A DNA stretch of 64,000 nucleotides, taken from positions 1,289,501-1,353,500 of the forward strand of contig NZ_CP007031.1 in NCBI RefSeq assembly GCF_000224005.2. Direction: 5' to 3'. Below the pieces are notes generated by a model, which saw nothing but the letters and a program-made list of their open reading frames with translations, made no database searches and had not been told where the DNA came from. The position numbers and the translations under genes were made by a program. This document shows positions 17,692 to 54,395 of this stretch, piece after piece. Each line of letters begins with the position of its first letter. Position 1 is the first letter of the stretch. The stretch is from Marichromatium purpuratum 984 (GTDB taxonomy: Bacteria; Pseudomonadota; Gammaproteobacteria; Chromatiales; Chromatiaceae).

Positions 17692-17726
17692 CAGCCATCA
17701 GCGACCAGCGATCAGCCACCAGTGAT
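17692..17726 (+). repeat. Heptamer repeat tract, 5 units
   Basis: CAGCCAT, CAGCGAC, CAGCGAT, CAGCCAC, CAGTGAT in perfect 7-bp register, 7 bp after the lrgB stop. It belongs to a dispersed family seen at about ten intergenic sites of this window. Confidence 0.75.
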
Positions 17727-17854
17727 AGGAGGTGGTTTGTCTCGTCGTCGCGCAGCTGATGGCAGGCCGACACCGAAGACGGGTCGCGTGCTTCGCGCCT
17801 CTGGCAGCCTTGCGGTTGCGGGGCATTGGGCGCAGGCATCGAGTATAGACGCCC

Positions 17855-17877
17855 ACTGGCGGCTGGCGGCTGGCGGC
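17855..17877 (-). repeat. Heptamer repeat tract, inverted orientation
   Basis: ACTGGCG, GCTGGCG, GCTGGCG: the same 7-bp family read on the other strand, facing the tract at 17692-17726 within the same lrgB-PEP-CTERM intergenic region. Confidence 0.7.
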
Positions 17878-17890
17878 CCTTCCCCAAACG

Positions 17891-17918
17891 CCGACGGCGG
17901 CCCGGAGGCCGCCGTCGG
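17891..17918 (-). terminator. Terminator of the PEP-CTERM gene
   Basis: Perfect 12-bp stem CCGACGGCGGCC / GGCCGCCGTCGG with a CGGA loop, 29 bp after the PEP-CTERM stop codon; a short TTT follows on the minus strand. Confidence 0.75.
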
Positions 17919-17947
17919 ATCATGCCGGCTGACGCGAGGTCAGCAGA

Positions 17948-18847
17948 TCAGGCGTGCTTGCGACGGCGGCTGCCGGCGAAGCCGATGCCGAGCAGACCGG
18001 CACCGAGCAGACCGAGGGTGGCCGGCTCGGGGATGCTGCCGGTGACCGAGCCGTCGAGCTTGGTCTGGCGGACGGCGGCCGGGCCACTGGGACCGGCGAC
18101 GAGCAGCAGCTGGTTGGCCGTCGGGATCGGCGGATCGACGTTGGTGTCGAGTTCCAGCGTCGGGGTGCCGCCGGCGGCGAGCTTGTCGAAGGCATCGATG
18201 AAGACACCGTTGTCGTCCTGGATGAACAGGAAGTTGTCCTCGGCGAAGGTGATGTCGAAGAACAGGTCGAGATTGGCGCCGCTGAGCGCCGAGCCGGTGA
18301 GTTCTCCGGTCAGCACCAGACGGTCGTTGGTGTCGTCGGTGAAGTCGTTGAAGTAGATATCGAAGGTGCCGCCGGTATAGGTGGGACCGCTGGCGCCGAG
18401 GTCACCGAAGAAGGTGTACTCGACCTGCAGATCCCAGGTCTGCAGGAAGCCTTCGTTGTCGGTCGCGAGCGGCGGCACCAACGGGCTCAGGGCGTCGATG
18501 TCGCACTGGCCGAGCGGACAGTTCGGCATGACCAGATCAACGGTGGTGACGCCGTCGAGCGCGGTCCCGGAGGTCGGGATGCCGTAGCTGGCGAGCGTGG
18601 CGGGGTCGTTGGTGTCGAAGAAGGACCCGGCCACCGAGCCGTCGGTGAAGTCGTAGATCGAGGTCGCGAGCAGCTGGCTGTAGCCGAACTCGTCGAAGGT
18701 CCCGGTCATGGTGTTCGCGTCCGGCGCGCCGATGAAGCGGCCAGCGTCGTAGCTGTTGTCCGGGAGGTTGATGTACATCAGGCCGGCGCTGGCGACATTG
18801 GCGGTCAGGGCGGTCGCTGCGGCCAGCGAGATCGTCAAGGTCTTCAT
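17948..18847 (-). CDS. PEP-CTERM sorting domain protein
   Basis: A 299-residue exported protein. The N-terminal signal peptide (MKTLTISLAAATALTANVASA) is followed by an acidic, Asp/Thr/Gly-rich extracellular domain of unknown function. At the C terminus is a canonical PEP-CTERM signal: the SIPEPATLGLLGAG motif, a hydrophobic stretch and a basic tail SRRRKHA. Such proteins are cleaved and anchored or released by an exosortase (EpsH) in exopolysaccharide-producing bacteria. No exosortase gene is in the window. The TPR lipoprotein at 25002-28745 belongs to the same system. A strong hairpin follows the gene and AGGAG precedes its ATG. Confidence 0.92.
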   Translation of the reverse strand: MKTLTISLAAATALTANVASAGLMYINLPDNSYDAGRFIGAPDANTMTGTFDEFGYSQLLATSIYDFTDGSVAGSFFDTNDPATLASYGIPTSGTALDGVTTVDLVMPNCPLGQCDIDALSPLVPPLATDNEGFLQTWDLQVEYTFFGDLGASGPTYTGGTFDIYFNDFTDDTNDRLVLTGELTGSALSGANLDLFFDITFAEDNFLFIQDDNGVFIDAFDKLAAGGTPTLELDTNVDPPIPTANQLLLVAGPSGPAAVRQTKLDGSVTGSIPEPATLGLLGAGLLGIGFAGSRRRKHA

Positions 18848-19072
18848 GGTTTCACTCCTGCGAGGTTGAGCTGTATGCGCGCTGTCGGGGCGCCGTCGGC
18901 AGCTTCCTTTGCCGGAGTCACGCGGCCCTCGATGGAGCTATATGCAGATGTCGGGCCAAATTTTTTTATTGTTTTACTTCAGTCGCTTACGTTTTTTGTT
19001 GGAGTTCTTGCAGACATGTGTGGGGCTGGTTGTAAAGTCTGCCGACACTCCTGTGCGGGATGTCTCAGTGGC

Positions 19073-20461
19073 TCAGTAACGCACTCGCCAGCCGGTGGCG
19101 ATGAGGGTGTCGTCGGCATAGAAGTCGCCGAAGGTGCCGTCCTCACCGTCGAAGTAGTGCACCCCGAGATAGAACTCGTGGGGCTCGCGGGCGATGTAGG
19201 CGATCTCGGGGTTGAGATAGAGGTCGTGGCGGTTGAGTCCCGCAGCGAAGCGTAGCCGACCACGCCAGCGACCCTGTCCCCACTCGCTCTCGAGCTGGCC
19301 GTTGAGGCTGAGGGTGTCGACCCAGTCGATCACCGGTGGTGCGTCGAGCAGGTGACGCCCGGCCAGCTGCAGGTTGATGCGAGTGTCGGCGTCGCCCGGG
19401 TAGAACTCGATCCCGGCCACCCAGTCGAGCCCGGCAACAGTGTCGAGACGCAGGTCGCGGGTAGTCACCGGGACATCGCTGAGCCAGGCGGCCTCGAGCC
19501 GCAGCGTGGCGCCGCCGATCACCACTCCGAGGTCACCGCCGAGGATGGTGGTGTAGGGGTGACGCCCGAGGAAGGTCGGGCGCTCGCCGCCGGCGGCGAG
19601 CGCGCTGGCGACATCGGCGCCGGCGGCGAGCGCACGCCGCACCGCCGGGTCGAGTTCGTAGTAGGGCAGTGAGTGACGGGTGTGCTGCACGGTGAGTGCG
19701 TAGTCGAGACCGCTCAGACTCTGGCTGAAGCGCAGACCGGCGCCGGCGCCGCCGGGGCGATCGTCGCCCGTGCTGGCGCCGCGCACCAGGGCCGCGAGCA
19801 GTGGATCGGAGCGGATGCCCAGCAGTCGTCCCTGGTCACGGTCGACCGGGTACCAGACGCTGTCGTCGTCGGGCAGCTCGGCGGGGCGGAATTCTGGGAT
19901 CACCACCAGGTCGAGCTTGTGGTCGGTGCCGAACTCCTCCCAGCGCAGCAGCGGCACGGCACGGCGGCGGTCGTCGAGTTCGTCGATGGCGAAGCGGCTG
20001 ATGTCCTGTACCGAGAGCCGGTCGGTCGGCGGGATCTCGTCGACCCGCCCCCAGAGCACGGTCTGCGCGCCGAGGGTGAGGCGTCGCCGCGGGGTGCTGT
20101 AGCGCAGATAGCTCTCGTCGTAGTCGAGCGCGAGCGCGCGCAAGCGCTCGGCGCCGGATTGGGCGTCGGCATCGAGGCGTAGCGCCGCGCGCAGCTCCCA
20201 GGCCGGTGTCGGGCGCCATGCAGCGGCGATCACCCCGGTGAAGTGGGCGCTGGTGGCCGCGCGCGCCTCGCCCTCGGTGAAGGCGCCGAACTCGGTCCAC
20301 AGCCGATCGATGCCGAGTTGCAACGCCCGTTGCCCGGCCGTTGTCGTCGGCTCGGGCAGTGCCGTCGGCGTCTCGGGTGCGCCGATGATCAGCACCTCCT
20401 GCGCCTCGACACCGACGGTGGCGAGCGCCAGCAGCAGTGGTGCGAGGACGCGGGCGCTCAT
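19073..20461 (-). CDS. Outer-membrane beta-barrel protein, DUF1302-like
   Basis: A 462-residue protein with signal peptide MSARVLAPLLLALATVGVEA. The rest is rich in alternating aromatic/hydrophobic strands (ALRLDADAQSGAERL, LTLGAQTVLWGRVDEI, GLRFSQSLSGLDYALTVQ) and ends VRY with a terminal aromatic residue, as outer-membrane barrels do. The phrase GRVDEIPPTDRLSVQD resembles DUF1302-type barrels found beside RND exporters and LolA-like proteins. It is the last gene of the ThiF-RND-LolA-barrel operon and overlaps the LolA-like gene by 4 bp. It probably provides the outer-membrane step of an export route. The substrate is unknown. Confidence 0.75.
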   Translation of the reverse strand: MSARVLAPLLLALATVGVEAQEVLIIGAPETPTALPEPTTTAGQRALQLGIDRLWTEFGAFTEGEARAATSAHFTGVIAAAWRPTPAWELRAALRLDADAQSGAERLRALALDYDESYLRYSTPRRRLTLGAQTVLWGRVDEIPPTDRLSVQDISRFAIDELDDRRRAVPLLRWEEFGTDHKLDLVVIPEFRPAELPDDDSVWYPVDRDQGRLLGIRSDPLLAALVRGASTGDDRPGGAGAGLRFSQSLSGLDYALTVQHTRHSLPYYELDPAVRRALAAGADVASALAAGGERPTFLGRHPYTTILGGDLGVVIGGATLRLEAAWLSDVPVTTRDLRLDTVAGLDWVAGIEFYPGDADTRINLQLAGRHLLDAPPVIDWVDTLSLNGQLESEWGQGRWRGRLRFAAGLNRHDLYLNPEIAYIAREPHEFYLGVHYFDGEDGTFGDFYADDTLIATGWRVRY

Positions 20462-21315
20462 GGCCGGAACCTGGACTCGAACACCGGATCCTCGAGCGCG
20501 CGGCGCGAGAACAGCACCGGGTCGAGTCCTCGGTCATAGCGGGTGAGGGTGCTGGTCATCCGCGTCTGGTGGCCGCTGCCGAGATCGGTCATGAGGCTGT
20601 CGGTCACCGTCCAGTAGCCCTGGATGCGCTCCAGTCGACGGGCGGTGAAGCGCTTGAAGGGCTGGCTCTGACCGGGGCGGAAGAAGTCGATGCGCAGCGC
20701 CACCAGCGCTTCGGGGTGGATCCAGCTCAGCCGTTTGCCGTAGACCGAGTTGCCCGGGTCGACCGGGGTGCTTTCGAGCACTTCGGTGCGTACGCCCTCG
20801 TAGGTCTCCTGACGCAGCCAGCGGTGTTCGTCGAGGGCGACGCGGCGATCGCGCAGATCCTCGTAGAACAGGTCGGAGCCGACGAAGCGCCCGCCCTGAC
20901 GGGCGGCGGGGATGCGCCTGGGCTTGCCGAGCGCGGGCAGATAGACCCATTGATCGCTCTCGCCTGCGCCATGATCGATGGTCAGCAGCCCGGTGTCGGC
21001 GATATCGCCCGGCGCGGTGAAGCGGATCAGGGTGGAGACCTCGCCGCCGCCCTGATCGCGACGATAGATGAACATCTCGCGGGTGCGCGGGGCGCGACCG
21101 CGCTCCTGCAGCACCATGGTGCCGCGGGTGGTGAGATCGCGCCCGTCGGGGCGGTCGTAGACCTGCCGGGCGAGGCGCTCTCCCTTGGGGTCGGCCTGCG
21201 CCGGGGTGAGCATGCAGCAGGCGAGCAGCAGCGCGAGCGCCGCCGTCCAGTGATGGGTCCGGGGCGGCACGAGCCGTCGTGACGTCCGCTGGGGGCGGGG
21301 CGATGGACTCGACAT
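20458..21315 (-). CDS. Outer membrane lipoprotein-sorting protein (LolA-like)
   Basis: A 285-residue periplasmic protein of the LolA-fold family often annotated as outer membrane lipoprotein-sorting protein. It has a long basic N-region followed by a hydrophobic signal segment (WTAALALLLACCMLTPAQA). After the signal, TTRGTMVLQERGRAPRTREM, an RDQGGGEVSTLIRFTAPGDI stretch and DQWVYLPALGKPRRI are typical of RND-linked LolA-like proteins. The fold binds lipids in a half-barrel. It sits between an MMPL-type RND exporter and an outer-membrane barrel, so it may carry a lipophilic substrate across the periplasm. The true start may be later than 21315, since the first 20 residues are long for a signal n-region. 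Confidence 0.82.
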   Translation of the reverse strand: MSSPSPRPQRTSRRLVPPRTHHWTAALALLLACCMLTPAQADPKGERLARQVYDRPDGRDLTTRGTMVLQERGRAPRTREMFIYRRDQGGGEVSTLIRFTAPGDIADTGLLTIDHGAGESDQWVYLPALGKPRRIPAARQGGRFVGSDLFYEDLRDRRVALDEHRWLRQETYEGVRTEVLESTPVDPGNSVYGKRLSWIHPEALVALRIDFFRPGQSQPFKRFTARRLERIQGYWTVTDSLMTDLGSGHQTRMTSTLTRYDRGLDPVLFSRRALEDPVFESRFRP

Positions 21316-21381
21316 GGGCTTCCTCGCTTCAGGCTCGGTGGCGCGGCGGTCGGCAAGGCCCGGCGCGGCGCTTGGGGTTTT

Positions 21382-21429
21382 CAGTGGGGCGCGTTGGCGG
21401 CGCTCGCGCGTCCGGTTCGCGCCCCACTG
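21382..21429 (-). other. Inverted repeat between RND and LolA-like genes
   Basis: CAGTGGGGCGC (21382-21392) and GCGCCCCACTG (21419-21429) are perfect 11-bp arms with a 26-nt loop in the 139-bp gap. No T-run follows on the minus strand, so it is more likely an mRNA-processing or partial-attenuation hairpin than a full terminator. Confidence 0.4.
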
Positions 21430-21454
21430 ACACTGCGCAAAGTCTGGTGCGATT

Positions 21455-23728
21455 TCACCGGGCTGTCCAGTCCGCCCGCGCGCGCCGATCGCGCAGTCGT
21501 CCGACGGCCATCAGCAGGGCCGGGAAGAGCAGCAGATCGAAAATCAACGCGGTGAGCAGACCGACGGCGGTGAGCAGGCCGAACTCACGCGTCGGCACGA
21601 ACTCGGAGCTGCCGAGCAGCAGGAACTGGCCGCACAGGATCAGCGTGGTGGCGACCACCGCACGACCGCTGTGCTGATAGGCTCGGGCCAGCGCCCAGAC
21701 CCGCGAGCCGTGGGCGGCGAGGTTGCGACGGTAGGCGTGGAAGAGATGGATGGTGTCGTCGATGGCGATGCCGGCGGTAACGCTGGCGATCATCGCGGTG
21801 GCCATGTCGAGCCAGATCCCGAGCACCCCCATGGCGATGAAGATCAGCAGGATCGGCGCGAGGTTCGGCACCATGCACAGCGCGGCGTCGCCGGGGCGGC
21901 GCCACATCGCCAGCATGAACAGCGAGATCAGCACCACGGCGGCGGCCAGTCCGCGGATCTGGCCGTCGATGAGCAGCCGTTCCTGATCGGCGAACAGCCG
22001 GCCGAACCCGGCCACCCGCACCTCCATGCCCTGCAGGTCGAGTTCGGCGAGCCGTGTCTCGACCCGCGCGATGAAGGCGTTGATCGCGCGCGCGCCACGG
22101 ATGTCGAGGTTGAGCGTCAGCCGGGTGCGGGCGAACTCGCGATCGACCAGCTCGTAGAGGTCGGTGCCGTCGTAGATGAAGAGATACTGGGCGATCAGCC
22201 GGGGGTCGCGGGGCAGGGCGCGGTAGTCGGCCCGTTCGTCGTGGAAGCCCCAGTGCATTTCCTCGATCAGATCGATCATCGACAGGCTGTGGCCGACCTC
22301 GGGCTGGTCCTCGAGCCAGTCTTGCACGGTGTCGATCAGCGCCAGGCGTTCGGGGCGCTTGAGCGCGTCGCGCGCGCCGGCGTCGAACACCAGCTCCAGG
22401 GTGGTAGTGCCGATCAGGCGCTCCTGGATGCGGGTGTTGGCCTGGGTGATGGGGTGCGCCGGGGTGAAGAAGCGCAGCATGTCGGTCTCGGTGTGGATGC
22501 GCCAGATCTGCGGCATCCCCAGCGCCAGCACCAGGGCGGTGACAGCGAGCACCCAACCGGCGTGACGCATGCCGAGATGGCGCAGCCGTCCGACCGCGTG
22601 GTCGAGCGGTCGCAGTGTCCGGCGGGTTTGCCACGCGCCACGGTCCCAGCGCGCGAAGATCGGCGGCACCAACCCGATCACGATCGCGCACTGTGCGAGC
22701 ATCCCCGCCGCCGCGACCAGGCCGAAGGCGGCGATCGGCTGGATCGGGCTGAAGCCGAGCGAGGCCAGCCCGGCGGCGGTGGTCAAAGCGGTGAACAGGA
22801 TGGGGCGGGCGACCCGGTGTCGCGCCCAGTCGATGCGCGCGCTCCCGGCGAGTCCGTGACGCGTGGCCTGGGCCAGGGCGTTGAGCCAATGGATCAGCGA
22901 GGCGATGGTCAGCGCCGACATCAGCGGCGGCAGGAGTGCCGAGACCAGGGTGTAGGGCTTGCCGGCGAGCACCAGCAAGGCGACGGTGAGGTTGACCACC
23001 ACCGCGATCACCAGGGCGCTGACCGCCACCGCCAGCACCCGCCTGAACATCAGCCAGATGATCAGCAGGCCGAACCCCATGGTTGCCGGCACGAAGATCA
23101 GGGTGTCGTGGATCATCGCGCGCAGCTGCGCGACGTCGAGCGCCACCTGCCCGGCGATGGCCGTCAGCCGCCCGTCCAGTCCGGCCGCGGCGATGGCCGC
23201 TCGGGTGTCCTGTTCGAGCGCGAGACGTTGCAGGCTGTCGCTGAGTTCGAGCGGGCGCACGATCAACGCCATGGCCTGGCCGTCGTCGGCGACCAGGTAG
23301 GAGGCGGCGAGGCGATCGTCGAGCACTCGCTGACGGCGCTCGGCGGGGGTGAGTGCAGCGGCGATCTCGGCATCGAGCAGTGGCTCGACGACGAAGCCCT
23401 CGGTGGTGCCGCTGATGTGGTCGACACCGGCCACCGCCAGCACCCGCTCGACCCTGGGGTTGCGCTCGATGTCCTCGATCAGCCCGAAGAAGGGCTGGAG
23501 GAAGGCGTCGCTGAACAGGTCCTCGCCCTCGAACAGGGCGATCAGCACCTGATCCGGGGGGAAGTCCGCGCGCAGCGCCGACTCGAAGCGTACCGCCGGG
23601 GCGTCGCCCGGGAAGTAGGCCTCGGGGGCGTTGTCGAGATGGAGTCTGGGTAACAGGGCGCCCGAGAGCGCGCCGAGCAACAGCAGCAGCGCGAGTGCGA
23701 GCGCCCCGGGGAGGCGTGGGGCTGTCAT
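21455..23728 (-). CDS. MMPL-family RND exporter
   Basis: A 757-residue inner-membrane protein with two RND/MMPL halves. Each half has a membrane segment, a periplasmic domain and a cluster of helices: GFGLLIIWLMFRRVLAVAVSAL and its neighbours in the first, GLAAAVVLISLFMLAMW and ITAGIAIDDTIHLFHAYRR-like residues in the second. The SVTAGIAIDDTIHLF segment carries the acidic pair used for proton relay. Relatives include hopanoid transporter HpnN and other lipid exporters. Genes for a ThiF-like enzyme upstream (40-bp gap) and a LolA-like protein and an outer-membrane barrel downstream suggest a dedicated export machine for a lipidic or modified small molecule. Confidence 0.85.
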   Translation of the reverse strand: MTAPRLPGALALALLLLLGALSGALLPRLHLDNAPEAYFPGDAPAVRFESALRADFPPDQVLIALFEGEDLFSDAFLQPFFGLIEDIERNPRVERVLAVAGVDHISGTTEGFVVEPLLDAEIAAALTPAERRQRVLDDRLAASYLVADDGQAMALIVRPLELSDSLQRLALEQDTRAAIAAAGLDGRLTAIAGQVALDVAQLRAMIHDTLIFVPATMGFGLLIIWLMFRRVLAVAVSALVIAVVVNLTVALLVLAGKPYTLVSALLPPLMSALTIASLIHWLNALAQATRHGLAGSARIDWARHRVARPILFTALTTAAGLASLGFSPIQPIAAFGLVAAAGMLAQCAIVIGLVPPIFARWDRGAWQTRRTLRPLDHAVGRLRHLGMRHAGWVLAVTALVLALGMPQIWRIHTETDMLRFFTPAHPITQANTRIQERLIGTTTLELVFDAGARDALKRPERLALIDTVQDWLEDQPEVGHSLSMIDLIEEMHWGFHDERADYRALPRDPRLIAQYLFIYDGTDLYELVDREFARTRLTLNLDIRGARAINAFIARVETRLAELDLQGMEVRVAGFGRLFADQERLLIDGQIRGLAAAVVLISLFMLAMWRRPGDAALCMVPNLAPILLIFIAMGVLGIWLDMATAMIASVTAGIAIDDTIHLFHAYRRNLAAHGSRVWALARAYQHSGRAVVATTLILCGQFLLLGSSEFVPTREFGLLTAVGLLTALIFDLLLFPALLMAVGRLRDRRARADWTAR

Positions 23729-23768
23729 GCCAGGGTCCTTGTCCTTGGTCGAGGGTGATGTCCGGCGT

Positions 23769-24647: not shown

Positions 24648-25001
24648 GACGATCTCGGATATGGTGACTCAGGGCGCGCGCAATAGGTTACATGCGCGCG
24701 ATGTTGGCAATGCGCGGCGTCTGAGTTCATTCCCATCACCCGGGGTCGCCACGGTCCACCGCGTCGCCTGGCATCCGGACTGTGCCGGGAGGCCGGGGCT
24801 GCGCGGTGATGGCCGTCGTCGTGCCCGTTGCTCGGCGGAGGCGGGGGCGCGTTGAGTTTGCGTCCACGATCCGGCATGATCGCTCGGGCCTTGCGGGGTA
24901 TCCATCGCGTCTTCTTGCGTCCGTCCACGCGCTTGGCGATGACGGACGATGGGGCGGACGGCTGCGGTCCATCCATTGAATCGGTCGTTGAGGGGAGAAC
25001 G
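24648..25001. other. Divergent intergenic region, 354 bp
   Basis: It separates the minus-strand ThiF-RND operon from the plus-strand TPR lipoprotein and must carry both promoters. I see no clear sigma70 or sigma54 promoter, riboswitch or repeat in it. AGGGGAG at 24991-24997 is the ribosome-binding site of the TPR gene. An open frame continues upstream to 24828 but has no better start. Confidence 0.4.
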
Positions 25002-29388: not shown

Positions 29389-33145
<3,757 letters not shown>

Positions 33146-45462: not shown

Positions 45463-45474
45463 GCCTGCCAACGG

Positions 45475-45502: not shown

Positions 45503-45530
45503 TCTCCAAGCGATCGCCTGCAGTGGCCGC

Positions 45531-46963: not shown

Positions 46964-47134
46964 GGCTCTGTCCTCCTTATCGTGCTGTTGTAGTGGGAGG
47001 CCGGATGACGGTTGGATGACCGTACGGCGCGCGGATTATACCCGGGGTCGCGCGCGATTGCCGGGGGCCGGGTGGCGATTCCGGACCGCAAGGGGCATGG
47101 GTCAGTTCGGTGGCTCCCAGCCGCCAGGATATAG

Positions 47135-47162
47135 AACCGCAAAGGCGCGAAGGGCGCCAAGG
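47135..47162 (+). repeat. AACCGCAAAG-type dispersed module
   Basis: AACCGCAAAGGCGCGAAGG followed by GCGCCAAGG. It is a copy of a sequence seen at four other intergenic positions of this window and is opposed by the inverted copy at 47315-47341. Confidence 0.65.
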
Positions 47163-47314
47163 GGGGTGTGGTTGAGGTAGAGCTGTGGTCAGCTGAGCAA
47201 GGTGTCTTACGCTCTCGCTGAGCGCTGAGCGACCAGTCGCCAGCAGGCGCGCTGACCAGGCAGCGGAGTGGATCCGCGCCGGTCGGGACCTACGCCAACC
47301 TCACCCCTCGTTCA

Positions 47315-47341
47315 CTTTGCGCGCTTTGCGACTTTGTGGTT
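47315..47341 (-). repeat. AACCGCAAAG-type dispersed module, inverted
   Basis: The plus strand reads CTTTGCGCGCTTTGCG then ACTTTGTGGTT, the reverse complement type of the module at 47135-47162. Heptamers follow immediately. Confidence 0.6.
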
Positions 47342-47346
47342 CGAGC

Positions 47347-47381
47347 CAGCCTCCAGCGATCAGCATCCAGCCTCCAGTCGG
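47347..47381 (+). repeat. Heptamer repeat tract, 5 units
   Basis: CAGCCTC, CAGCGAT, CAGCATC, CAGCCTC, CAGTCGG in 7-bp register. The first four bases are kept and the last three vary. Confidence 0.7.
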
Positions 47382-47490
47382 GGAGACTGGTGTGCATGAT
47401 CGGCGGTTGACGGGAAAGACAGTATCTTAGCGGTTCAAGCATCCCCGGCCGTGCGCCGAACCTTTCCAGTCATGAGCGTCGGCCCTCCCC

Positions 47491-47525
47491 ACTGGCGGCT
47501 GTCAGCTGGTGGCTGGAAGCTGCCC
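47491..47525 (-). repeat. Heptamer repeat tract, inverted orientation
   Basis: ACTGGCG, GCTGTCA, GCTGGTG, GCTGGAA, GCTGCCC on the plus strand, that is the CAGC-type family read on the minus strand. Confidence 0.7.
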
Positions 47526-47558
47526 CGCGGTTCAAACATCCCGGCCGCACACCGGCCT

Positions 47559-47646
47559 CAGCCACCAGTCGCCAGTCGTCAGTCACTGAGCGTCGGCGCT
47601 CTCCGCTGGGGGCTGTCAGCTGGCGGCTGGTGGCTGAAAGCTACCC
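47559..47646. repeat. Pair of opposed heptamer tracts
   Basis: CAGCCAC, CAGTCGC, CAGTCGT, CAGTCAC (47559-47586) face GCTGGGG, GCTGTCA, GCTGGCG, GCTGGTG, GCTGAAA, GCTACCC (47605-47646). The right tract covers the stop codon of the Fe-S membrane-protein gene. Confidence 0.7.
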
Positions 47647-48774
47647 CGTGGTTGAAGCATCGCCGGCCCCACGCCGGGTCCGCCGACGCTTTGCCGCGGC
47701 CTCGCGCAGCAGGGCGAGGGCGCGGTAGCCGCCGTGGACGAGCTTGCTGTAGGGGATGAGCAGGAAGAAGGCGATCACGGTGGCGAGGTGGAGCGCGAGC
47801 AGCACGCCCATCGCCGCGGTGGCGCGCCAGCCGAGCAGGGCCAGGCCGCTAAGCGCGACGGCGGCGAGCAGTGCGAGCAGCGCGGCGTCGGCGCCACGGC
47901 TCGCGCTGGTGCTCGGCGTCGGGTCGGCGCGCAGGGTGAGCCAGGCCAGCCCGAAGGTGGCGATGGTCATCGCCAGTCCGCCGAGGGTGCCGAGCACCAC
48001 CGGCAGGCTCCACCAGGGGTAGGGCGCCTGCAGCCCGAGCAGATGGTGATAGACGGTGGCGACCGTGGTCGCGGCGAGACAGCCGAGCAGCCCGAGCAGC
48101 AGGGTGTGGTGTAGCCGACGGCGCCAGTGCGAGGGGCGGTCGTCGAGGTCGTTGCAGCCGGGACCGCCGCCGCGCAGGTTGCGCAGGGTGGCGAGATCGG
48201 CGAGCGCGGCGCGCCAGTCACGCCACGCCGGGGGCGGTTCGCCGGCGCTCGCGCCCTCGCGCCACACCCGGCGCAGCGATACGGTGACGGCCAGCAGCGA
48301 CCAGCCCAGCGGCAACGCTGCGAGCAGGCTCATCCAGCCCCAGGGGATCACGGCATAGAAGGCGCCGGGGCCCTGGTGCGCGGCGAACAGCACTGTGTGG
48401 GGCACCAGCGCGAGCACCGCGCCGAGTACCAGCGCGATGGTCGCCAGTGCCACCAGCAGCGCACTCGCCGGGCCATCGACCAGCAGCCGTGCCAGCGGGC
48501 GCGGCCAGGCGTGGCGCAGATAGGCGTGGTGGCGCAGCTCGGTCAGCGCCCGGGGGACGTTGACCGCGAAGGGGTGCGGCGGCGCGTACTGGCAGGCATA
48601 GAGACAGTTGCGACAGTGGTGACAGAGATGGGCGAGGTGTTCGAGGTCGGTGTCGGTCAGCGCCGGGCGCAGCCGCGCCGACTCGAAGACGTCGCAGAAG
48701 CCGTTGCAGTAGCCACAGGCGTTGCAGATGGCGAGCGCGCGCCGCGCCTCGGCGTGGGGATCAGTTGAGGACAT
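47641..48774 (-). CDS. tcuB: TcuB/CobZ C-terminal-type Fe-S membrane protein
   Basis: A 377-residue protein. The N-terminal 100 residues hold two [4Fe-4S] motifs (ICNACGYCNGFC and LCHHCRNCLYACQYAPP); six or so membrane segments follow, as in the TcuB/CitB family. In tricarballylate use TcuB re-oxidises the flavoprotein TcuA through the quinone pool. In Rhodobacter capsulatus the equivalent region is the C-terminal half of CobZ. It overlaps the flavoprotein gene by 14 bp. Its last residues (GAGDASTTG) are encoded within a tandem repeat. The start at 48774 begins just before the first Fe-S motif. Confidence 0.85.
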   Translation of the reverse strand: MSSTDPHAEARRALAICNACGYCNGFCDVFESARLRPALTDTDLEHLAHLCHHCRNCLYACQYAPPHPFAVNVPRALTELRHHAYLRHAWPRPLARLLVDGPASALLVALATIALVLGAVLALVPHTVLFAAHQGPGAFYAVIPWGWMSLLAALPLGWSLLAVTVSLRRVWREGASAGEPPPAWRDWRAALADLATLRNLRGGGPGCNDLDDRPSHWRRRLHHTLLLGLLGCLAATTVATVYHHLLGLQAPYPWWSLPVVLGTLGGLAMTIATFGLAWLTLRADPTPSTSASRGADAALLALLAAVALSGLALLGWRATAAMGVLLALHLATVIAFFLLIPYSKLVHGGYRALALLREAAAKRRRTRRGAGDASTTG

Positions 48775-50146
48775 GACGCGCCGCCTCCTCGCCGGCGATG
48801 CGCCCGAACACCATGCCGATGGTGAGCGCGAGTCCGGAGACATAGCCGCGCGGGATCAGGTTAGGTTGCATCGCGACCCCCGCAGCGAACAGGTTGGTGG
48901 CGACCCCGCCTCGCGTCAGCCGCACCCGGGTGTCGGGGGCGACGGCGAGACCCTGGTAGCCGAAGGTGATGCCCGGGCGCATCGGGTAGGCGGCGAAGGG
49001 CGGGGTGTCGAGCACCCGCGCATGGCCGCTCTTGGGCGGCTCCAGCCCCTCGGTGTGACCGGCCTCCGGGGTCTCGCCCGGACGCACGGCGGCGTTGTAG
49101 GCGGCGAGGGTGGCAATGAGCGCCTCCGGGTCGAGTCCGAGGCGCCCGGCCAGCGCCTCCGGGGTTGGGGCCGTGATCGGTGGGTAGAGCGAGGGTGGGG
49201 CGCTCTGCCACGCCGGGGTGTCGAGCACCAGATAGGCGACCTGGTCGGGACAGTCGATCAGCCGTTGGCCCCAGCGGGCATAGCGGGTCGAGGCGGTATC
49301 GCCACCCTCGTCGAGGAAGCGTCGACAAGCGCCGTCGACGACGATCCCGGCGGGCATGCAGCGCACCCGGGTGACGATGCCGCCGTCATCGACCGGCGCG
49401 CGCCCGTCGATCGCGACCAGATGGGCGCGCCCCGGGTCGCCGACCGGCTCGGCGCCCTGTTCGAGCAGGCGCAGCAGCGCTCGGCCCTCGGAGTAGGGGG
49501 TGCCGCGATTGAGGATGCCGGCGGCGCGCGCGCCCCAGTGCCGGGCGAGCCAGTCGCGGTTGGCGTGGGGGCCGCCGCTGCAGAGGAGCAGTGCGCCGGG
49601 GGCGAGGTGCAGGGTCGCGCCGTGCGGGTCGCGCACCCCGACCCGCTCGACCCGCTCGCCGTCCAGGCCCGGGTCGTCGAGCGCGTACTGGTAGTGGATG
49701 GCGACGCCGAGCCGTTCGGCCTCGGCATAGAGCGCGTTGATCATCGCGGTGCCGCCGCCGAGCAGGAAGGCGGTCTTGCGCGAGGGCGGCAGTACCCCGC
49801 TGGCACGCGGCTGCAGCGCCACCCCGCAGCCGCCGAGCCATGCGGGCAGGTCGGCCGAGCGCTCGACCAGCAGCCGGGCGAGCAGCGGGTCGGTCCCGCC
49901 CTCGGTCACCCCTTGCAAGTCGGCGAGGAAGGTCGCGGCCGGATAGGGACCGCTCGACAGCGCGTTGGCGGTGTCGTGGGCATAGCGGAAGTTGCGCGCA
50001 TGACGGGTGTTGCCGCCGCGTCGGGCGCGGGGCGCCTGTTCGATCAGGGTCACCCGGGCGCTGGCGCGGCGTGCGCTGATCGCCGCGCACAGCGCCGCAG
50101 TGCCACCACCGGCGACGAGGACGTCCGGGGTCGGGTCGGGGATCAT
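48761..50146 (-). CDS. cobZ: CobZ-type flavoprotein (TcuA family), probable precorrin-3B synthase
   Basis: A 461-residue FAD-dependent oxidoreductase. The dinucleotide-binding motif is VLVAGGGTAALCAAISARR near the N terminus, with TRHARNFRYAHD soon after; the C-terminal part has ITFGYQGLAVAPDTRVRL and the FAD-binding end AAGVAMQPNLIPRGYVSG. The family includes tricarballylate dehydrogenase TcuA and the N-terminal half of CobZ, which replaces CobG in making precorrin-3B. The surrounding cob genes and the lack of a cobG in the window favour the CobZ role. Tricarballylate oxidation cannot be excluded by sequence alone. Confidence 0.8.
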   Translation of the reverse strand: MIPDPTPDVLVAGGGTAALCAAISARRASARVTLIEQAPRARRGGNTRHARNFRYAHDTANALSSGPYPAATFLADLQGVTEGGTDPLLARLLVERSADLPAWLGGCGVALQPRASGVLPPSRKTAFLLGGGTAMINALYAEAERLGVAIHYQYALDDPGLDGERVERVGVRDPHGATLHLAPGALLLCSGGPHANRDWLARHWGARAAGILNRGTPYSEGRALLRLLEQGAEPVGDPGRAHLVAIDGRAPVDDGGIVTRVRCMPAGIVVDGACRRFLDEGGDTASTRYARWGQRLIDCPDQVAYLVLDTPAWQSAPPSLYPPITAPTPEALAGRLGLDPEALIATLAAYNAAVRPGETPEAGHTEGLEPPKSGHARVLDTPPFAAYPMRPGITFGYQGLAVAPDTRVRLTRGGVATNLFAAGVAMQPNLIPRGYVSGLALTIGMVFGRIAGEEAARHVLN

Positions 50147-50331
50147 CGCAGCTGGGGACGGGGGGTGGGGCAGGGCCGCTCTAGCGGGCCGGACGCGGGT
50201 GGTTTGACAAGGGGTGACATGGGTTACAAGAATACTCGGCTTTGGCCTTGACCATACGAGAGGACCGCGCCCCATGCAACCGACCCCATCCCTGATCCGC
50301 GCACGCGTCGCATCGCGCAGGAGCCGAGCCC
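50147..50331. promoter_or_regulatory. Divergent cobZ-cobM intergenic region
   Basis: 185 bp with a consensus -35 TTGACA at 50204-50209 on the plus strand. The best -10 candidates (TACAAG at 50225, 15 bp away, or AATACT at 50231, 21 bp away) are off spacing, so an activator may be needed. No cobalamin riboswitch core was found. Confidence 0.35.
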
Positions 50332-51111
50332 ATGGGTAAGGTGTGGTTCGTCGGCGCCGGTCCGGGCGCGCCCGACCTGATCACGGTGCGCGGCACCCGG
50401 CTGCTGGCCGAGGCCGACGCCATCCTCTATACCGGCTCGCTGGTGGCCGAGACCGCGCTGCAGTGGGCCTCGCCCGAGTGCGAGATCGCCGATTCCAAGT
50501 CGATGGACCTGGCGCAGGTCACCGAGTGGCTCCTCGATCGCGCCGCGCGGTGCCAGACGGTGGTGCGCCTGCAGACCGGCGACCCGACCCTCTACGGCGT
50601 CGTCGCCGAGCTGGCGCGGCCACTCGACGCCGCCGGGGTCGAGGTCGGTATCGTCCCCGGGGTGTCCTCGGCGATGGCCTCGGCGGCGGCCGCCGGCGAG
50701 TGCCTGACTCTGCCCGAGGTCACCCAGACAGTGATCTTCACCCGCGTCTCCGAGCGTACCAAGATGCCCGAGCGCGAGCACTTCGCCGGGCTTGCCGCGC
50801 ACGGCTGCACCCTCTGCATCTTCCTCTCGATCGAGCGCATCGAGTCGATCGCCCAGAGCCTGGAGGAGGCCGGTTGGGCCGCCGATGCGCCGGTGGTGGT
50901 GGTGCACAAGGCGACCTGGCCGGGCGAGGAGCTGGTGCTGCGCGGCACCATCGCCGACATCGCCGCGCGTTGCCGCGAGGCTAAGGTCGAGCGTCAGGCG
51001 CTGATCCTGGTCAGCCCCGCGCTCGGCGCCCGCCAGCACGCCCCGCGCGCCACCTCAAAGCTCTACGACGCCAGCTTCCCGCGCCGCTTCCGCCCGGCGC
51101 GCGAGGATTGA
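50332..51111 (+). CDS. cobM: Precorrin-4 C11-methyltransferase
   Basis: A 259-residue tetrapyrrole methylase. VWFVGAGPGAPDLITVRG, LYTGSLV, LQTGDPTLYGVVAEL and VPGVSSAMASAAAAGECLTLP are CobM/CbiF hallmarks, and FTRVSERTKMPERE is specific to the C11 enzyme. It makes precorrin-5. It lies divergent from cobZ, whose product supplies the upstream ring-contraction substrate. The ATG is preceded by AGGAG about 13 nt upstream. A repeat module begins 6 bp after the stop. Confidence 0.95.
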   Translation: MGKVWFVGAGPGAPDLITVRGTRLLAEADAILYTGSLVAETALQWASPECEIADSKSMDLAQVTEWLLDRAARCQTVVRLQTGDPTLYGVVAELARPLDAAGVEVGIVPGVSSAMASAAAAGECLTLPEVTQTVIFTRVSERTKMPEREHFAGLAAHGCTLCIFLSIERIESIAQSLEEAGWAADAPVVVVHKATWPGEELVLRGTIADIAARCREAKVERQALILVSPALGARQHAPRATSKLYDASFPRRFRPARED

Positions 51112-51116
51112 CTGTG

Positions 51117-51143
51117 AACCGCAAAGGCGCAAAGGACGCGAAG
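51117..51143 (+). repeat. AACCGCAAAG-type dispersed module
   Basis: AACCGCAAAGGCGCAAAGG then ACGCGAAG, 5 bp after the cobM stop codon. It is inverted relative to 51393-51419. Confidence 0.7.
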
Positions 51144-51232
51144 CAGAGAAGCGCGTGATGGGCTTCCAGGCGGGGGCAGTCGACAGTGTGGCGGTTCATC
51201 CTTCTGATGACTGTCTCGGGATGCACGCGTCC

Positions 51233-51253
51233 ACTGGCGGCTGAGGGCTGATT
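51233..51253 (-). repeat. Short heptamer tract
   Basis: ACTGGCG, GCTGAGG, GCTGATT: three units of the heptamer family within the cobM-cbiZ gap. Confidence 0.55.
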
Positions 51254-51392
51254 GCTTACCCGGTGGTGACCAAGGTCACTTCGCGCGTCCCTTGATTGCA
51301 GAGGGCGCGGTCGGACCATCCTCGGCCATCGCCACTGTTTATCGGCCTTTTTCGCCAAGCATGCCGCGCCTTACCCGGCCCGTCCGGCTCAT

Positions 51393-51419
51393 CTTTGCGC
51401 CCTTCGCGGCTTTGCGGTT
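51393..51419 (-). repeat. AACCGCAAAG-type dispersed module, inverted
   Basis: The plus strand reads CTTTGCGCCCTTCGCGG then CTTTGCGGTT. With the copy at 51117-51143 it forms a 27-bp imperfect inverted repeat around 249 bp. Confidence 0.7.
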
Positions 51420-51484
51420 CAATCCCGCTGGCCGCTGAAGACCTTTCCTCGCCCCCACGATTCAGCCACTCTCAGGTCCCGCCC

Positions 51485-52636
51485 ATGTTGCTCGAAGAGA
51501 CCGATCGTTATCAGCTCCATCGTCGGGGCCGCTATCTGTACGCCGCGCTGGCGCGGCCGCACCGGGTGCTCAGTACCTGCCGGATCAACGGCGGGCTGCG
51601 CGAGGATCTGACCCATGTGGCCAATCACCAGGGCTGCGAGGGTGTGGCGCACGACCCGCGCGGGGCCACCGCGGTCGACGAGGGGCCGGGTGGCTACCAT
51701 GTGCGCGCCTGCGAGGATGCCGGGTTGCCGCCGTCGCGCACCGCGCTGATGGCCACCGCCGCCAACATGCAGTGCGCGGTGCTCGGGCATGCCGCCGAGG
51801 GCGATCTGGCGGTGACCGTGGCCGCCACCGCCGGGGTGCTTGGCAACGCCACCCGTGCCGGGGATCGCGCCGGCTGGCTGGAGTGCGAGGAGGGCTGTCG
51901 GGCGCGCGCTGCCGCGTCCGAGGCGGCGCCACCCGAGCGTGGCGCCGGTACCATCGTCACCCTGGTGTTCGTCAATCAGCCGTGCACGCCGGCCTGTCTG
52001 GTGCGCGCCGCGACCCTGGTGACCGAGGGCAAGAGCGCGGCGGTGCTCGATCTACGTGTGCCCAGCCTGCAATCGAGCGCGCTGGCCACCGGCACCGGCA
52101 CCGATCAGCTCGCCATCGCCGCGCCGCTGGCACGCGAGGGTGAGTGGGAGCGGCAGTGGGCTGGCGGGCACAACCTGCTCGGCGAGCTGCTCGGGCGCGC
52201 CACCCATCAGGCGGTGACCCGCTCGCTGCTGTTGCAAAACGGGCTCTGTCCCGAGCTGCGGCGCAACCTCTGCGGCGCGCTCGGACGTCACGGCTGCGAC
52301 GAGCAGGCGCTGTGCCGCGCCGCCGAGCGCTGGCTGGCGGCGGATCTCGCCGAGGTCTTTGCCCGTAACCTGCAGGCGCTGGTGCACGACCCGCTGAGTG
52401 CGGCGGCGGCCTTCGCCCTGGCCGAGGTGCTGGATCTGGCCCGCGACGGGGTGTTGCACGCCGAGGTCGCCCGCGAGGCGGTGCTCAACCAGGCCGCGCA
52501 GCTCGGCGCGGCGGTGGCGGTGCGCCCGGATGCCTTCGTGGCGCTGCGCGAGCGTCTGCTCGCCGAGCCGGGGCTTGCGCCCGCCGAGCTGGCGGCACTG
52601 GCGGTGGTCGAGGGGTTTGCGCGCAAATGGAACTGA
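51485..52636 (+). CDS. cbiZ: Adenosylcobinamide amidohydrolase CbiZ
   Basis: A 383-residue protein with CbiZ hallmarks: LSTCRINGGLREDLTHVANHQ early, ATAGVLGNATRAGD in the middle and GTIVTLVFVNQPCTPACL followed by TEGKSAAVLDL and ATGTGTDQLAIAAP. CbiZ removes the aminopropanol arm from adenosylcobinamide or from foreign cobamides, returning adenosylcobyrate, so that the cell can rebuild its own cobamide. It overlaps cobD by 10 bp; CobD uses the same intermediate, which fits a remodelling operon. The C-terminal 120 residues beyond the core are an extension, rich in Ala and Leu. The start at 51485 precedes the conserved core; frame upstream looks non-coding. Confidence 0.88.
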   Translation: MLLEETDRYQLHRRGRYLYAALARPHRVLSTCRINGGLREDLTHVANHQGCEGVAHDPRGATAVDEGPGGYHVRACEDAGLPPSRTALMATAANMQCAVLGHAAEGDLAVTVAATAGVLGNATRAGDRAGWLECEEGCRARAAASEAAPPERGAGTIVTLVFVNQPCTPACLVRAATLVTEGKSAAVLDLRVPSLQSSALATGTGTDQLAIAAPLAREGEWERQWAGGHNLLGELLGRATHQAVTRSLLLQNGLCPELRRNLCGALGRHGCDEQALCRAAERWLAADLAEVFARNLQALVHDPLSAAAAFALAEVLDLARDGVLHAEVAREAVLNQAAQLGAAVAVRPDAFVALRERLLAEPGLAPAELAALAVVEGFARKWN

Positions 52637-53571
52637 CCTCTTCCGTCGCGCTGGTCCTCGGCGCTTGTCTGCTCGATGCCCTGCTCGGTGATCCGGTCTA
52701 TCGCTTCCATCCGGTGCGGCTGATCGGTGCCTGGATCCAGACCTGCGAGCGCGTGCTCTTTGCGCGCGGGCTCGATGGCTATCTCGGGGGTGTGCTGCAC
52801 TGGCTGCTGGTGGTCGGCGGTGCGCTCGGGGTGTGGTGGGTCGGCCATCTCGGGTTCGCTGCGCTGCACCCGGCGCTCGCCTTCGGCTGGGACCTGTTCA
52901 TCGCCTACAGCCTGCTCTGTACCCGCGATCTGCTCGGTCAGGGGTTGCGGGTGCTGCGCGCGCTCGATGACCTGCCGGCGGCGCGCCGGCATATGGTGAT
53001 GCTGGTCGGGCGTGACACCGACCGGCTCGATCGCGCCGGGATCGTGCGCGCCACCATCGAGAGCCTGTCGGAGAACCTCACCGACGGCGTGCTCACGCCG
53101 CTGTGGGCCTTCTGTCTGTTCGGGGTGCCGGGGCTGGTGGTGGTCAAGGCGATCTCCACGCTCGATTCGATGATCGGCTACAAGAACGATCGCTATCGTC
53201 GCTTCGGTTGGGCCGGGGCGCGCTCGGACGATGTGGTGCACTGGCTGCCGGCGCGTCTCTCGGTGCCGCTGATCGCGCTCGCCGCCGCGCTGTTGCGCGG
53301 CCATCCCCGGCTGGTGTGGCCGGCGTTGCGCTATCGCACGCTGCTGCCGAGCCCGAACTCGGGCTGGAGCGAGGCGGCCTGCGCCGGGGCGCTGCGGGTG
53401 CGGCTGCTCGGTCCGGTGTGGTACGGCGGCGTGCTGATGGGCGAGGCCTATATCGGCGATCCCGACTGGTCCGCCGACCTCGACGGCGCCGACCTGCGCC
53501 GCGCGCTGCGGTTGATCCTGGTCGCCGCGCTGCTGGCGCTGGGGTTCGGGTTGATGATGGTTGCGAGCTGA
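52627..53571 (+). CDS. cobD: Adenosylcobinamide-phosphate synthase CobD/CbiB
   Basis: A 314-residue inner-membrane enzyme. DALLGDPVYRFHPVRLIG near the N terminus, RDTDRLDRAGIVRATIESLSEN and the hallmark STLDSMIGYKNDRYRRFG are clear, as is LLPSPNSGWSEAACAGAL. It attaches aminopropanol (or its phosphate) to adenosylcobyrate. The ATG overlaps cbiZ by 10 bp. Several hydrophobic segments fit its known membrane location. Heptamer repeats begin 9 bp after the stop. Confidence 0.95.
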   Translation: MELTSSVALVLGACLLDALLGDPVYRFHPVRLIGAWIQTCERVLFARGLDGYLGGVLHWLLVVGGALGVWWVGHLGFAALHPALAFGWDLFIAYSLLCTRDLLGQGLRVLRALDDLPAARRHMVMLVGRDTDRLDRAGIVRATIESLSENLTDGVLTPLWAFCLFGVPGLVVVKAISTLDSMIGYKNDRYRRFGWAGARSDDVVHWLPARLSVPLIALAAALLRGHPRLVWPALRYRTLLPSPNSGWSEAACAGALRVRLLGPVWYGGVLMGEAYIGDPDWSADLDGADLRRALRLILVAALLALGFGLMMVAS

Positions 53572-53579
53572 AGACGAAT

Positions 53580-53642
53580 CAGCCGCCAGCCGCCAGCCGC
53601 CAGCCGCCAGCCGCCAGCCGCCAGCCGCCAGCCTCCAGTCGG
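53580..53642 (+). repeat. Heptamer repeat array, 9 units
   Basis: Seven perfect CAGCCGC units, then CAGCCTC and CAGTCGG. This is the longest plus-orientation tract in the window and lies in the cobD-sugE gap, opposed by 53765-53806. Confidence 0.9.
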
Positions 53643-53764
53643 CGCCCTCACTCAGCGACCGTCGCAAACGGCAAGCTGCGTAGGATGGGCAAAGTGCAAC
53701 GTGCCCATCTTCACAAGCTATCCGCCTCTTCGCCGGGCACGCTGCGCGTTGCCCGGCCTGCCGC

Positions 53765-53806
53765 GCTGGAGGCTGATAGCTGGCGGCTGGCGGCTGAAAG
53801 CCGGCG
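53765..53806 (-). repeat. Heptamer repeat tract, inverted orientation
   Basis: GCTGGAG, GCTGATA, GCTGGCG, GCTGGCG, GCTGAAA, GCCGGCG on the plus strand, 11 bp from the stop of the SMR gene. Confidence 0.8.
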
Positions 53807-53817
53807 GCTCGCCCCCC

Positions 53818-54144
53818 TTACTCCGGCGAGACCAGCTTGAGTCCGACGATGCCGATGACGATCAGGCCGACGAAGAAGAAGCGGGCGAGGGTGGCCGGTT
53901 CGGCGAACAGCCAGATGCCGATGGCGAAGGCGCCGACGGCGCCGATGCCGGTCCAGACCGCGTAGGCGGTGCCGATCGGGATGTCGCGCTGGGCGAGCAG
54001 TAGCAGCGCCCCGCTGGCGACCATGCAGACCGCCGCGAACAGGATCCAGCCCCAGCGCATGCCCTGATCGGTCATCCCGAGCTTGAGTCCGACCGGCCAC
54101 CCCCATTCGAACATGCCGGCGATGACGAGATAGATCCAGGCCAT
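53818..54144 (-). CDS. sugE: Small multidrug resistance protein, Gdx/SugE-type guanidinium exporter
   Basis: A 108-residue protein with four membrane helices. The essential Glu13 (AGMFEWGW), the GLKLGM segment and PIGTAYAVWTGIGAVGAF match the SugE/Gdx branch, which exports guanidinium, more than the EmrE drug-exporter branch. It has no adjacent SMR partner and so probably works as a homodimer. The start follows the family N terminus (MAWIYLVIAG). The gene is framed by repeats on both sides. A 7-bp hairpin lies about 48 bp upstream; I could not identify a guanidine riboswitch there. Confidence 0.9.
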   Translation of the reverse strand: MAWIYLVIAGMFEWGWPVGLKLGMTDQGMRWGWILFAAVCMVASGALLLLAQRDIPIGTAYAVWTGIGAVGAFAIGIWLFAEPATLARFFFVGLIVIGIVGLKLVSPE

Positions 54145-54191
54145 TGTGATGTCGTGTCTCCGTGATACGTGGGTGGTGAAATCAGGTGAGC

Positions 54192-54208
54192 CGGCTCGGT
54201 GCGAGCCG
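54192..54208 (-). other. Hairpin upstream of sugE
   Basis: CGGCTCG / CGAGCCG perfect arms with a 3-nt loop, 48-64 bp before the sugE ATG. It does not carry the ACGR loops of the guanidine-II riboswitch. It may be part of the leader mRNA or of the repeat region. Confidence 0.35.
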
Positions 54209-54223
54209 TGAAGTAGGAGCCGC

Positions 54224-54251
54224 CAGCGATCAGCCGCCAGCCGCCAGTGGC
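54224..54251 (+). repeat. Heptamer repeat tract, 4 units
   Basis: CAGCGAT, CAGCCGC, CAGCCGC, CAGTGGC; faces the array at 54312-54395. Confidence 0.75.
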
Positions 54252-54277
54252 CGTTTGCCCTCACGCGGCTCGGCTTT

Positions 54278-54304
54278 CTTCGCGTCCTTTGGGTCTTTGC
54301 GGTT
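54278..54304 (-). repeat. AACCGCAAAG-type dispersed module, inverted
   Basis: The plus strand reads CTTCGCGTCCTTTGGG then TCTTTGCGGTT, directly followed by the long heptamer array, showing that the two repeat types form one composite. Confidence 0.65.
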
Positions 54305-54311
54305 CAATCTC

Positions 54312-54395
54312 CTGGCGGCTGGCGGCTGGCGGCTGGCGGCTGGCGGCTGGCGGCTGGCGGCTGGCGGCTGGCGGCTGAAAGGCTGATCGCTGGAG
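54312..54395 (-). repeat. Heptamer repeat array, 12 units
   Basis: Nine perfect CTGGCGG units, then CTGAAAG, GCTGATC and GCTGGAG-type units. It is the longest tract of the family and lies in the folB-sugE gap. Confidence 0.88.

What the first reader, a model, noticed from the sequence alone, without database searches (positions are those of the whole stretch)
17692..54395. Dispersed degenerate heptamer repeats (CAGCCGC family)
At least ten intergenic tracts keep exact 7-bp register while the last three bases of each unit vary (CAGC/CAGT plus three). They occur in opposed pairs: 17692/17855, 47559/47605, 53580/53765, 54224/54312, so each gap could fold into a large hairpin or mark a mobile or recombining element. 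They recall the short tandem heptamers of cyanobacteria but have a different sequence. Tracts avoid genes except at one stop codon.
Basis: seen in the sequence. Interest (0 to 1): 0.65.

Follow-up and report, generated by a model that had tools for sequence, protein, structure and literature searches.

The report
Inward-facing seven-letter repeats between genes
Purple sulfur bacteria of the genus Marichromatium carry hundreds of copies of a seven-letter DNA word in runs between their genes; the first three letters of the word hold nearly still while the last three drift, the runs tend to face each other in pairs, and the pattern suggests that something reads the fixed letters rather than that the pairs simply fold together.

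Summary
In detail: 24 matches to four CAGY units in 7-bp register in the window, 0 in shuffles; 959 overlapping CAGC matches in the genome against 143 for the reversed control. The genus is Marichromatium. Tracts are intergenic, change length in 7-bp steps between species, and mostly face inward (CAG-> <-CAG: 41 pairs, 9 outward), though weakly in M. bheemlicum (7:4). The large-hairpin reading is weakened: facing arms are no more alike, and fold no better together, than arms swapped between loci. What is kept is the core: CAG positions differ at 1.9-2.0% between species, the last three at 12.8-17.2%, other intergenic DNA at 6.9-17.2%. A second degenerate repeat (E9) usually lies nearby, also inward and unmatched. 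CAGY arrays recur in other genera; some use CAGTTAT, the published TAACTGA repeat read from the other strand. Xanthomonas GGGANTN repeats are the nearest precedent. Verdict: a new variant of a known kind, copied composite intergenic elements with slippage-prone arms and a constrained core, probably read by an unidentified factor.

The parts
17692..17726 (+). heptamer tract, 5 units (CAGCCAT CAGCGAC CAGCGAT CAGCCAC CAGTGAT), 7 bp after the called stop at 17684
17852..17872 (-). opposed tract, 3 units, inner end CAGTGGG
47347..47381 (+). heptamer tract, 5 units, inner end CAGCCTC CAGTCGG
47488..47522 (-). opposed tract, 5 units, inner end CAGTGGG
47559..47586 (+). heptamer tract, 4 units
47602..47636 (-). 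opposed tract, 5 units, 4 bp from the called stop of a tcuB-like gene at 47641
51230..51250 (-). lone tract, 3 units, inner end CAGTGGA, lying between two E9 arms
53580..53642 (+). array (CAGCCGC)7 CAGCCTC CAGTCGG, 8 bp after the stop of cobD/cbiB (52627-53571); array at the same position in M. gracile and M. bheemlicum
53762..53796 (-). opposed tract, 5 units, 21 bp from the stop of an SMR-family gene (53818-54144)
54224..54251 (+). heptamer tract, 4 units, inner end CAGTGGC
54315..54377 (-). opposed array (CAGCCGC)9
54278..54309 (-). E9 arm (degenerate GAACCGC/AAG repeat, reverse strand) next to the array at 54315
   Evidence: assigned by eye
51114..51143 (+). E9 arm GTGAACCGCAAAGGCGCAAAGGACGCGAAG, just after the called stop at 51111
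51393..51424 (-). E9 arm facing 51114-51143
47313..47346 (-). diverged E9-like arm next to tract 47347
   Evidence: assigned by eye

Best explanation
These are copied, composite, non-coding intergenic elements of purple sulfur bacteria. From outside inwards a full element has an outer, often uniform heptamer array, an E9 arm, a short mixed heptamer tract that often ends in CAGTGGG, a loop, and the same parts on the other strand; many copies are partial. Shown: arrays gain and lose whole 7-bp units; spacers with elements resemble each other beyond the heptamers; the CAG core is nearly fixed while the last three bases drift at or above the intergenic rate; arms mostly face inward; facing arms do not match in their variable bases. 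Inferred: a fixed core and orientation without mate matching means the repeats are read as sequence at a 7-nt pitch by a DNA- or RNA-binding factor, with slippage and recombination supplying length change and turnover. Factor and purpose are not identified. That elements persist because spacers, above all those just past stop codons, tolerate them is also inference.
For: Core constraint: CAG 13/680 against NNN 87/681 substitutions to M. gracile, 6/302 against 52/302 to M. bheemlicum; other intergenic 6.9% and 17.2%; coding 4.0% and 10.0%. CAG stays low against a halved intergenic rate, which allows for picking tracts in one genome (p=0.013 and 1.3e-6). Position 1 C->T, as wobble-tolerable as position 4 C->T, was seen 2 times in 227 and 0 in 99, while position 4 differs at 18% and 11%. 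Without assuming a core, the most invariant triplet of 141 period-7 intergenic segments is CAG in 60.4 and AGC in 25.0, ties shared. Slippage: tract indels of 4 bp or more are multiples of 7 in 19 of 22 and 6 of 8, against 2 of 33 and 7 of 120 in other intergenic DNA. Copying: with tracts masked, 32 of 46 heptamer spacers resemble another spacer, against 19 of 372 others. Inward against outward: 41:9 in G000, 20:2 in M. gracile (partly the same sites), 5:0 in G459 and 5:0 in G496, single tracts 28 of 36 pooled. Mates unmatched: 0.551 against 0.544; E9 0.619 against 0.606.
Against: No binding factor was found; no expression or binding data exist here. M. bheemlicum orientation is weak (7 inward, 4 outward, 8 and 1 same-strand; p=0.55), and single-tract orientation is not significant in any one genome (G000 9 of 13). 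NNN divergence may be inflated by unit misregister inside arrays; CAG divergence is lowered by picking tracts that carry CAG in the reference. In the bheemlicum comparison 7 of 11 changes at position 4 are C>G, so Y is not kept there. Elements fold better than dinucleotide shuffles (24 of 30 below z -2), so a loose hairpin role is not excluded. Constraint could reflect a copying preference rather than binding.
Confidence: 0.5

Rival explanations
1. Hairpin elements (BIME-like terminators or mRNA-end stabilisers): facing arms pair in RNA or DNA and the pairing is what is selected.
For: Inward pairs; folding better than dinucleotide shuffles (median z -4.17, 30 of 37 pairs tested). Enriched between convergent genes (12 of 51 spacers against 36 of 370 others).
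Against: Facing arms match no better than swapped arms by identity or folding energy (-66.25 against -66.15 kcal/mol, p=0.87). Position 1 C->T should be tolerated by G-U pairing but is rare. Also present in divergent spacers (11 of 104).
Confidence: 0.15
2. Neutral satellite: polymerase slippage and unequal exchange alone make and homogenise heptamers; no function.
For: Indels in multiples of 7; unit replacement at one site, (CAGCGGC)n in G000 against (CAGGAGC)n in M. bheemlicum; heptamers are reported as over-represented among long simple repeats in many bacteria (PMC4679880 introduction; PMC4692102 passages).
Against: Slippage treats all 7 positions alike, but CAG changes 6.7 to 8.7 times less than NNN. 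It predicts neither inward orientation nor the accompanying E9 arms.
Confidence: 0.2
3. MITE/REP-like elements mobilised in trans by a transposase, for example a RAYT.
For: Related copies at many loci; one Y1 transposase match, open frame of about 250 aa, in each of G000, G001 and G003.
Against: The 3.3-kb loci around that gene hold no tract of 3 or more units (one 2-unit match in the G000 spacer) and no E9 in the flanks printed. G015 and G500 have arrays but no Y1 match; 94 of 116 family genomes have one, so presence says little. No clean empty site or target duplication among the indels shown.
Confidence: 0.1
4. Chi-like recombination hot spots: the reverse complement of CAGCCAC arrays contains GCTGGTGG (E. 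coli Chi, recalled).
For: The exact octamer arises in CAGCCAC arrays (sequence reading).
Against: CAGCCAC is a minority unit (20 collapsed runs against 66 for CAGCCGC), and the bases Chi needs after GCTG are the variable ones.
Confidence: 0.02
5. Arms written separately by repeated 3'-end DNA synthesis at breaks in spacers, then joined.
For: Predicts inward CAG on each 3' end, independent arms and spacer replacement up to gene ends (gaps 156960, 192591, 243823, by eye).
Against: E9, some loops and the CAGTGGG tip are shared between loci, pointing to copying. Spacer left outside the elements is not short: median 154 bp (12 convergent) and 162 bp (23 tandem) against 42 and 72 bp for whole repeat-free spacers; 173 against 250 bp for divergent. 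No enzyme was looked for.
Confidence: 0.05

Closest known systems
Xanthomonas GGGAATC/(GGGANTN)n heptamers (PMC4692102; passages, section 10 and discussion read)
   Same: Degenerate 7-mers with conserved and free positions, dispersed, 89% and 93% intergenic, close to ORFs, 70 and 75 cases of two convergent tracts, length and sequence variation between close species, function unknown.
   Different: Core is GGGA, not CAGY; G-quadruplex capacity is their hallmark; GGGANTN x4 has 0 matches in G000. Core constraint and mate matching were not reported in the parts I read.
TAACTGA repeats of Beggiatoaceae, Thiocystis violascens, cyanobacteria and Bacteroidetes (PMC4679880; abstract and three sections read)
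   Same: TAACTGA is CAGT+TAT on the other strand; CAGTTAT units occur mixed with other CAGY units in family members G015 and G500. In Microcystis they are reported as often mixed with other heptamers.
   Different: [quoted passage not shown] here units are mixed, tracts mostly in inward pairs and often after stop codons.
Geobacter metallireducens 'global regulator' classes 1-3 (PMC2700814; passages and supplement legends read)
   Same: Short tandem repeats (GTTGCTYN, TCTCCGTS[Y], 7-mer MTYCTGA) mostly as opposite-strand pairs; variable distance stated for classes 1 and 2.
   Different: Different units, 16-48 sequences per class, suggested IHF/HU sites; supplements themselves not read.
Cyanobacterial STRR heptamers (recalled; Calothrix heptanucleotides are mentioned in PMC4692102)
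   Same: Tandem 7-mers.
   Different: Sequences recalled only; not compared here.

Membership tests
Long heptanucleotide SSRs (broad class) | tandem 7-bp units, mostly intergenic | tested here: met
Long heptanucleotide SSRs (broad class) | unit-wise length change between close relatives | tested here: met
   19/22 and 6/8 tract indels are multiples of 7
Xanthomonas GGGANTN repeats | convergent opposed pairs | tested here: met
   41 inward against 9 outward
Xanthomonas GGGANTN repeats | GGGA core | tested here: not met
   0 matches in G000; unit spectrum is CAGY-based
TAACTGA repeats | CAGTTAT unit (TAACTGA on the other strand) | tested here: inconclusive
   present in family members G015 and G500; not among the 50 commonest of 67 units in G000
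[quoted passage not shown]
   one of 47 start-side distances is under 36 bp in G000 (crude start calls)
REP/BIME with RAYT | RAYT gene flanked by the repeats | tested here: not met
MITE | insertion into an empty site with target duplication | tested here: inconclusive
   none seen among the indels shown, but sites are mostly occupied in both species
Hairpin element kept by base pairing | mates match or covary | tested here: not met
Chi site | fixed GCTGGTGG octamer (recalled) | tested here: not met
   the bases after GCTG are the fast-changing ones

The most novel reading that the evidence does not exclude
A dedicated, still unknown factor reads a CAGY core at a 7-nt pitch, with polarity, across Chromatiaceae spacers, and the TAACTGA repeats of Beggiatoaceae, cyanobacteria and Bacteroidetes are another dialect of the same signal. 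The two arms of each element are separate addresses (possibly even written separately onto the two 3' ends of a broken spacer), not halves of a hairpin.
Probability: 0.15. Interest if true: 0.8.

Novelty: new variant of a known kind. Interest (0 to 1): 0.5.

Why it matters
Paired short tandem repeats have been noted in unrelated bacteria without an established function, with folding or protein binding offered as possible reasons. Here the arms can be tested against each other and the bases against three species. The result favours reading of a short core over mate-specific pairing, links two separately described repeat sets through one core, and shows a second repeat type with the same layout.

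Tried and rejected
Chi sites: rejected because the free bases are those Chi needs. Y1/RAYT mobilisation: see rivals. Rfam: at gathering threshold only a tRNA in the window. Papers: (listings and abstract starts) showed no report of CAGC heptamers in Chromatiaceae; one search searched six motif strings and found one unrelated paper. The library lacks most subscription journals, so this is not proof of absence; the Allochromatium and Chromatium genome papers listed were not opened. Phylum scan: CAGY x5 occurs in 53 of 397 genomes; those listed are mostly uniform arrays, with some mixed ones (for example G220, G224), so pattern hits alone do not show kinship. I first thought CAGTT units went with low GC; G015 has 63% GC, so that was dropped. 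The G000/G003 comparison by anchors showed only sites that differ in having tracts. Running the mate test on a Xanthomonas-type genome was considered and not done. My gene caller is crude: the ORF it called at 54417-55487 holds a PlsY domain only from residue 169, so contexts near starts are unreliable; stop-side distances are firmer. Six of 65 tracts lay in called genes, all six with a skipped unit; tracts in called genes were filtered out of the tract-pair counts. Pairs used: 37 of 41 (gap 3-130 bp; arms cut to the six inner units), and 30 of 37 for shuffles.
Full report
Observation. Four CAGY units in register match 24 times in the window and never in 100 shuffles. The window is bases 1,289,501-1,353,500 of a single 3,779,112-bp contig, G000. 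Genome-wide, CAGCNNN x4 has 493 forward and 466 reverse overlapping matches, against 62 and 81 for the reversed pattern.

Where they are. In a 464-kb sample 23 of 23 runs of four or more CAGC units are intergenic, and CAGC (with its complement) leads all 256 tetramer cores. In 1.004 Mb, period-7 segments found without assuming a core are CAG-cored in 101 of 141 intergenic and 3 of 79 coding cases. Tracts occur in 12 of 51 convergent, 25 of 266 tandem and 11 of 104 divergent spacers of 60 bp or more. On the stop side 20 of 49 distances are 12 bp or less; on the start side 1 of 47.

Anatomy. One search shows the layout: outer array, then GATTGAACCGCNAAG... (here called E9), then a short mixed heptamer tract, a loop, and the reverse; many loci have only some parts. 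CAGTGGG is the last (inner) unit in 15 of its 16 collapsed runs. E9 (GAACCGCNAAG) has 74 copies in 1.004 Mb, 57 within 150 bp of a tract; of 34 neighbouring E9 pairs 25 face inward, 2 outward, 7 are same-strand. Across 116 family genomes the stricter E9 pattern was found in 19 and CAGY arrays in 50; by my tally of the two tables 17 of the 19 carry both (Fisher p=1.4e-5).

Orientation. Of 77 neighbouring tract pairs within 250 bp in G000, 41 are CAG-> <-CAG, 9 outward, 15 and 12 same-strand; each of the 9 outward junctions has a further tract in the inward sense on at least one side. M. gracile shows 20 inward and 2 outward; M. bheemlicum only 7 and 4, with 8 and 1 same-strand (p=0.55). In other genera, from stretches chosen because they held hits, G459 gives 5 of 5 and G496 5 of 5 inward, G015 one inward and one same-strand, G500 none. 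In spacers with one tract, CAG reads away from the nearer gene in 28 of 36 pooled over seven genomes (p=0.001), not significant in any one.

Mates do not match. Bases 4-7 of the innermost three units agree at 0.551 between facing arms and 0.544 between shuffled arms (756 of 2000 shuffles reach it); aligned from the outer end 0.498 against 0.504. Folding energies of real and swapped mates are -66.25 and -66.15 (37 pairs, p=0.87). E9 mates: 0.619 against 0.606 (467 of 2000). Whole elements are foldable (median z -4.17); since swapped mates fold as well, this comes from the shared cores and strand compositions, not from matching within each pair.

What evolves. Between G000 and M. gracile (about 292 kb syntenic) arrays differ by whole units: 19 of 22 tract indels of 4 bp or more are multiples of 7; to M. 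bheemlicum 6 of 8; in other intergenic DNA 2 of 33 and 7 of 120. Substitutions at CAG are 13/680 and 6/302; at the last three bases 87/681 and 52/302; other intergenic 6.9% and 17.2%; coding 4.0% and 10.0%. Position 4 changes are C/T in 37 of 41 in the gracile comparison; in bheemlicum 7 of 11 are C>G. Tracts were picked in G000, which lowers apparent CAG change; halving the intergenic rate to allow for this leaves p=0.013 and 1.3e-6. Unit misregister may raise the NNN figure.

Turnover of whole elements. By eye there are tandem duplications of 174-183 bp (158189, 185676, 264484) and three sites (156960, 192591, 243823) where the same spacer holds different elements in the two species, with breakpoints at or near gene ends. 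After cobD the array start is shared by three species, but the window lacks the E9 that follows in the other two, as expected if the outer array recombined with an inner tract (inference). Masked for tracts, 32 of 46 heptamer spacers still resemble other spacers, against 19 of 372. No clean insertion into an empty site was seen. The spacer left outside elements is longer than a typical repeat-free spacer for convergent (154 against 42 bp) and tandem genes (162 against 72), shorter for divergent (173 against 250), which speaks against elements generally eating away the spacer.

Spread. CAGY x5 occurs in 50 of 116 family genomes and 28 of 61 genera, and in 53 of 397 Pseudomonadota genomes, where the hits listed are mostly uniform arrays. 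Reversed controls are not empty in the family (for example G443 50/18, G510 54/22), so counts there are not all signal. G015 (63% GC) and G500 (52% GC) use CAGTTGT, CAGTTAT and CAGTTTT units, which include the published TAACTGA repeat read from the other strand.

Reading. The tests favour a core that is read over arms that pair. Slippage explains length; copying and recombination explain spread and swaps; neither explains why CAG stays and NNN drifts, nor the inward direction. Xanthomonas GGGANTN repeats are the nearest precedent for the layout, so I file this as a new variant of a known kind.

Noticed in passing
window 11-2862 and 3292-11161: CRISPR array with 45 exact copies of a 28-bp repeat (CTCATAACCCCTTATAGGGATTCGTAAC) beside cas1, cas4-like, Cas3-type helicase, Csc2-like and weakly Csc3-like genes. 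Cas1 passes the general cas1 cut-off and Csc2 just passes the Pfam one; the other type I-D matches are below cut-off and ORF 6711-7451 is unmatched, so it looks like a divergent I-D relative.
   Followed up: partly
window 51114-51143, 51393-51424, 54278-54309; genome-wide: E9, a second degenerate direct repeat (GAACCGCNAAGNCNCNAAG...) with the same inward, mate-unmatched layout; 59 forward and 68 reverse strict matches in the genome and 0 reversed-control matches.
   Followed up: partly
L080 about 11496-11697 (G000 about 51496-51697): Runs of 9-bp units (CCGACTGCT and CCTGCTGTT types) whose length differs from M. gracile by 108 and 27 bp, multiples of 9.
   Followed up: no
G000:C1:3420001-3440000 (L049): 5000 masked N bases in this stretch.
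   Followed up: no
G000 264690 and 133642 against M. gracile: About 15.8 kb and 6 kb of extra DNA in M. gracile between shared anchors; possible insertion sites.
   Followed up: no
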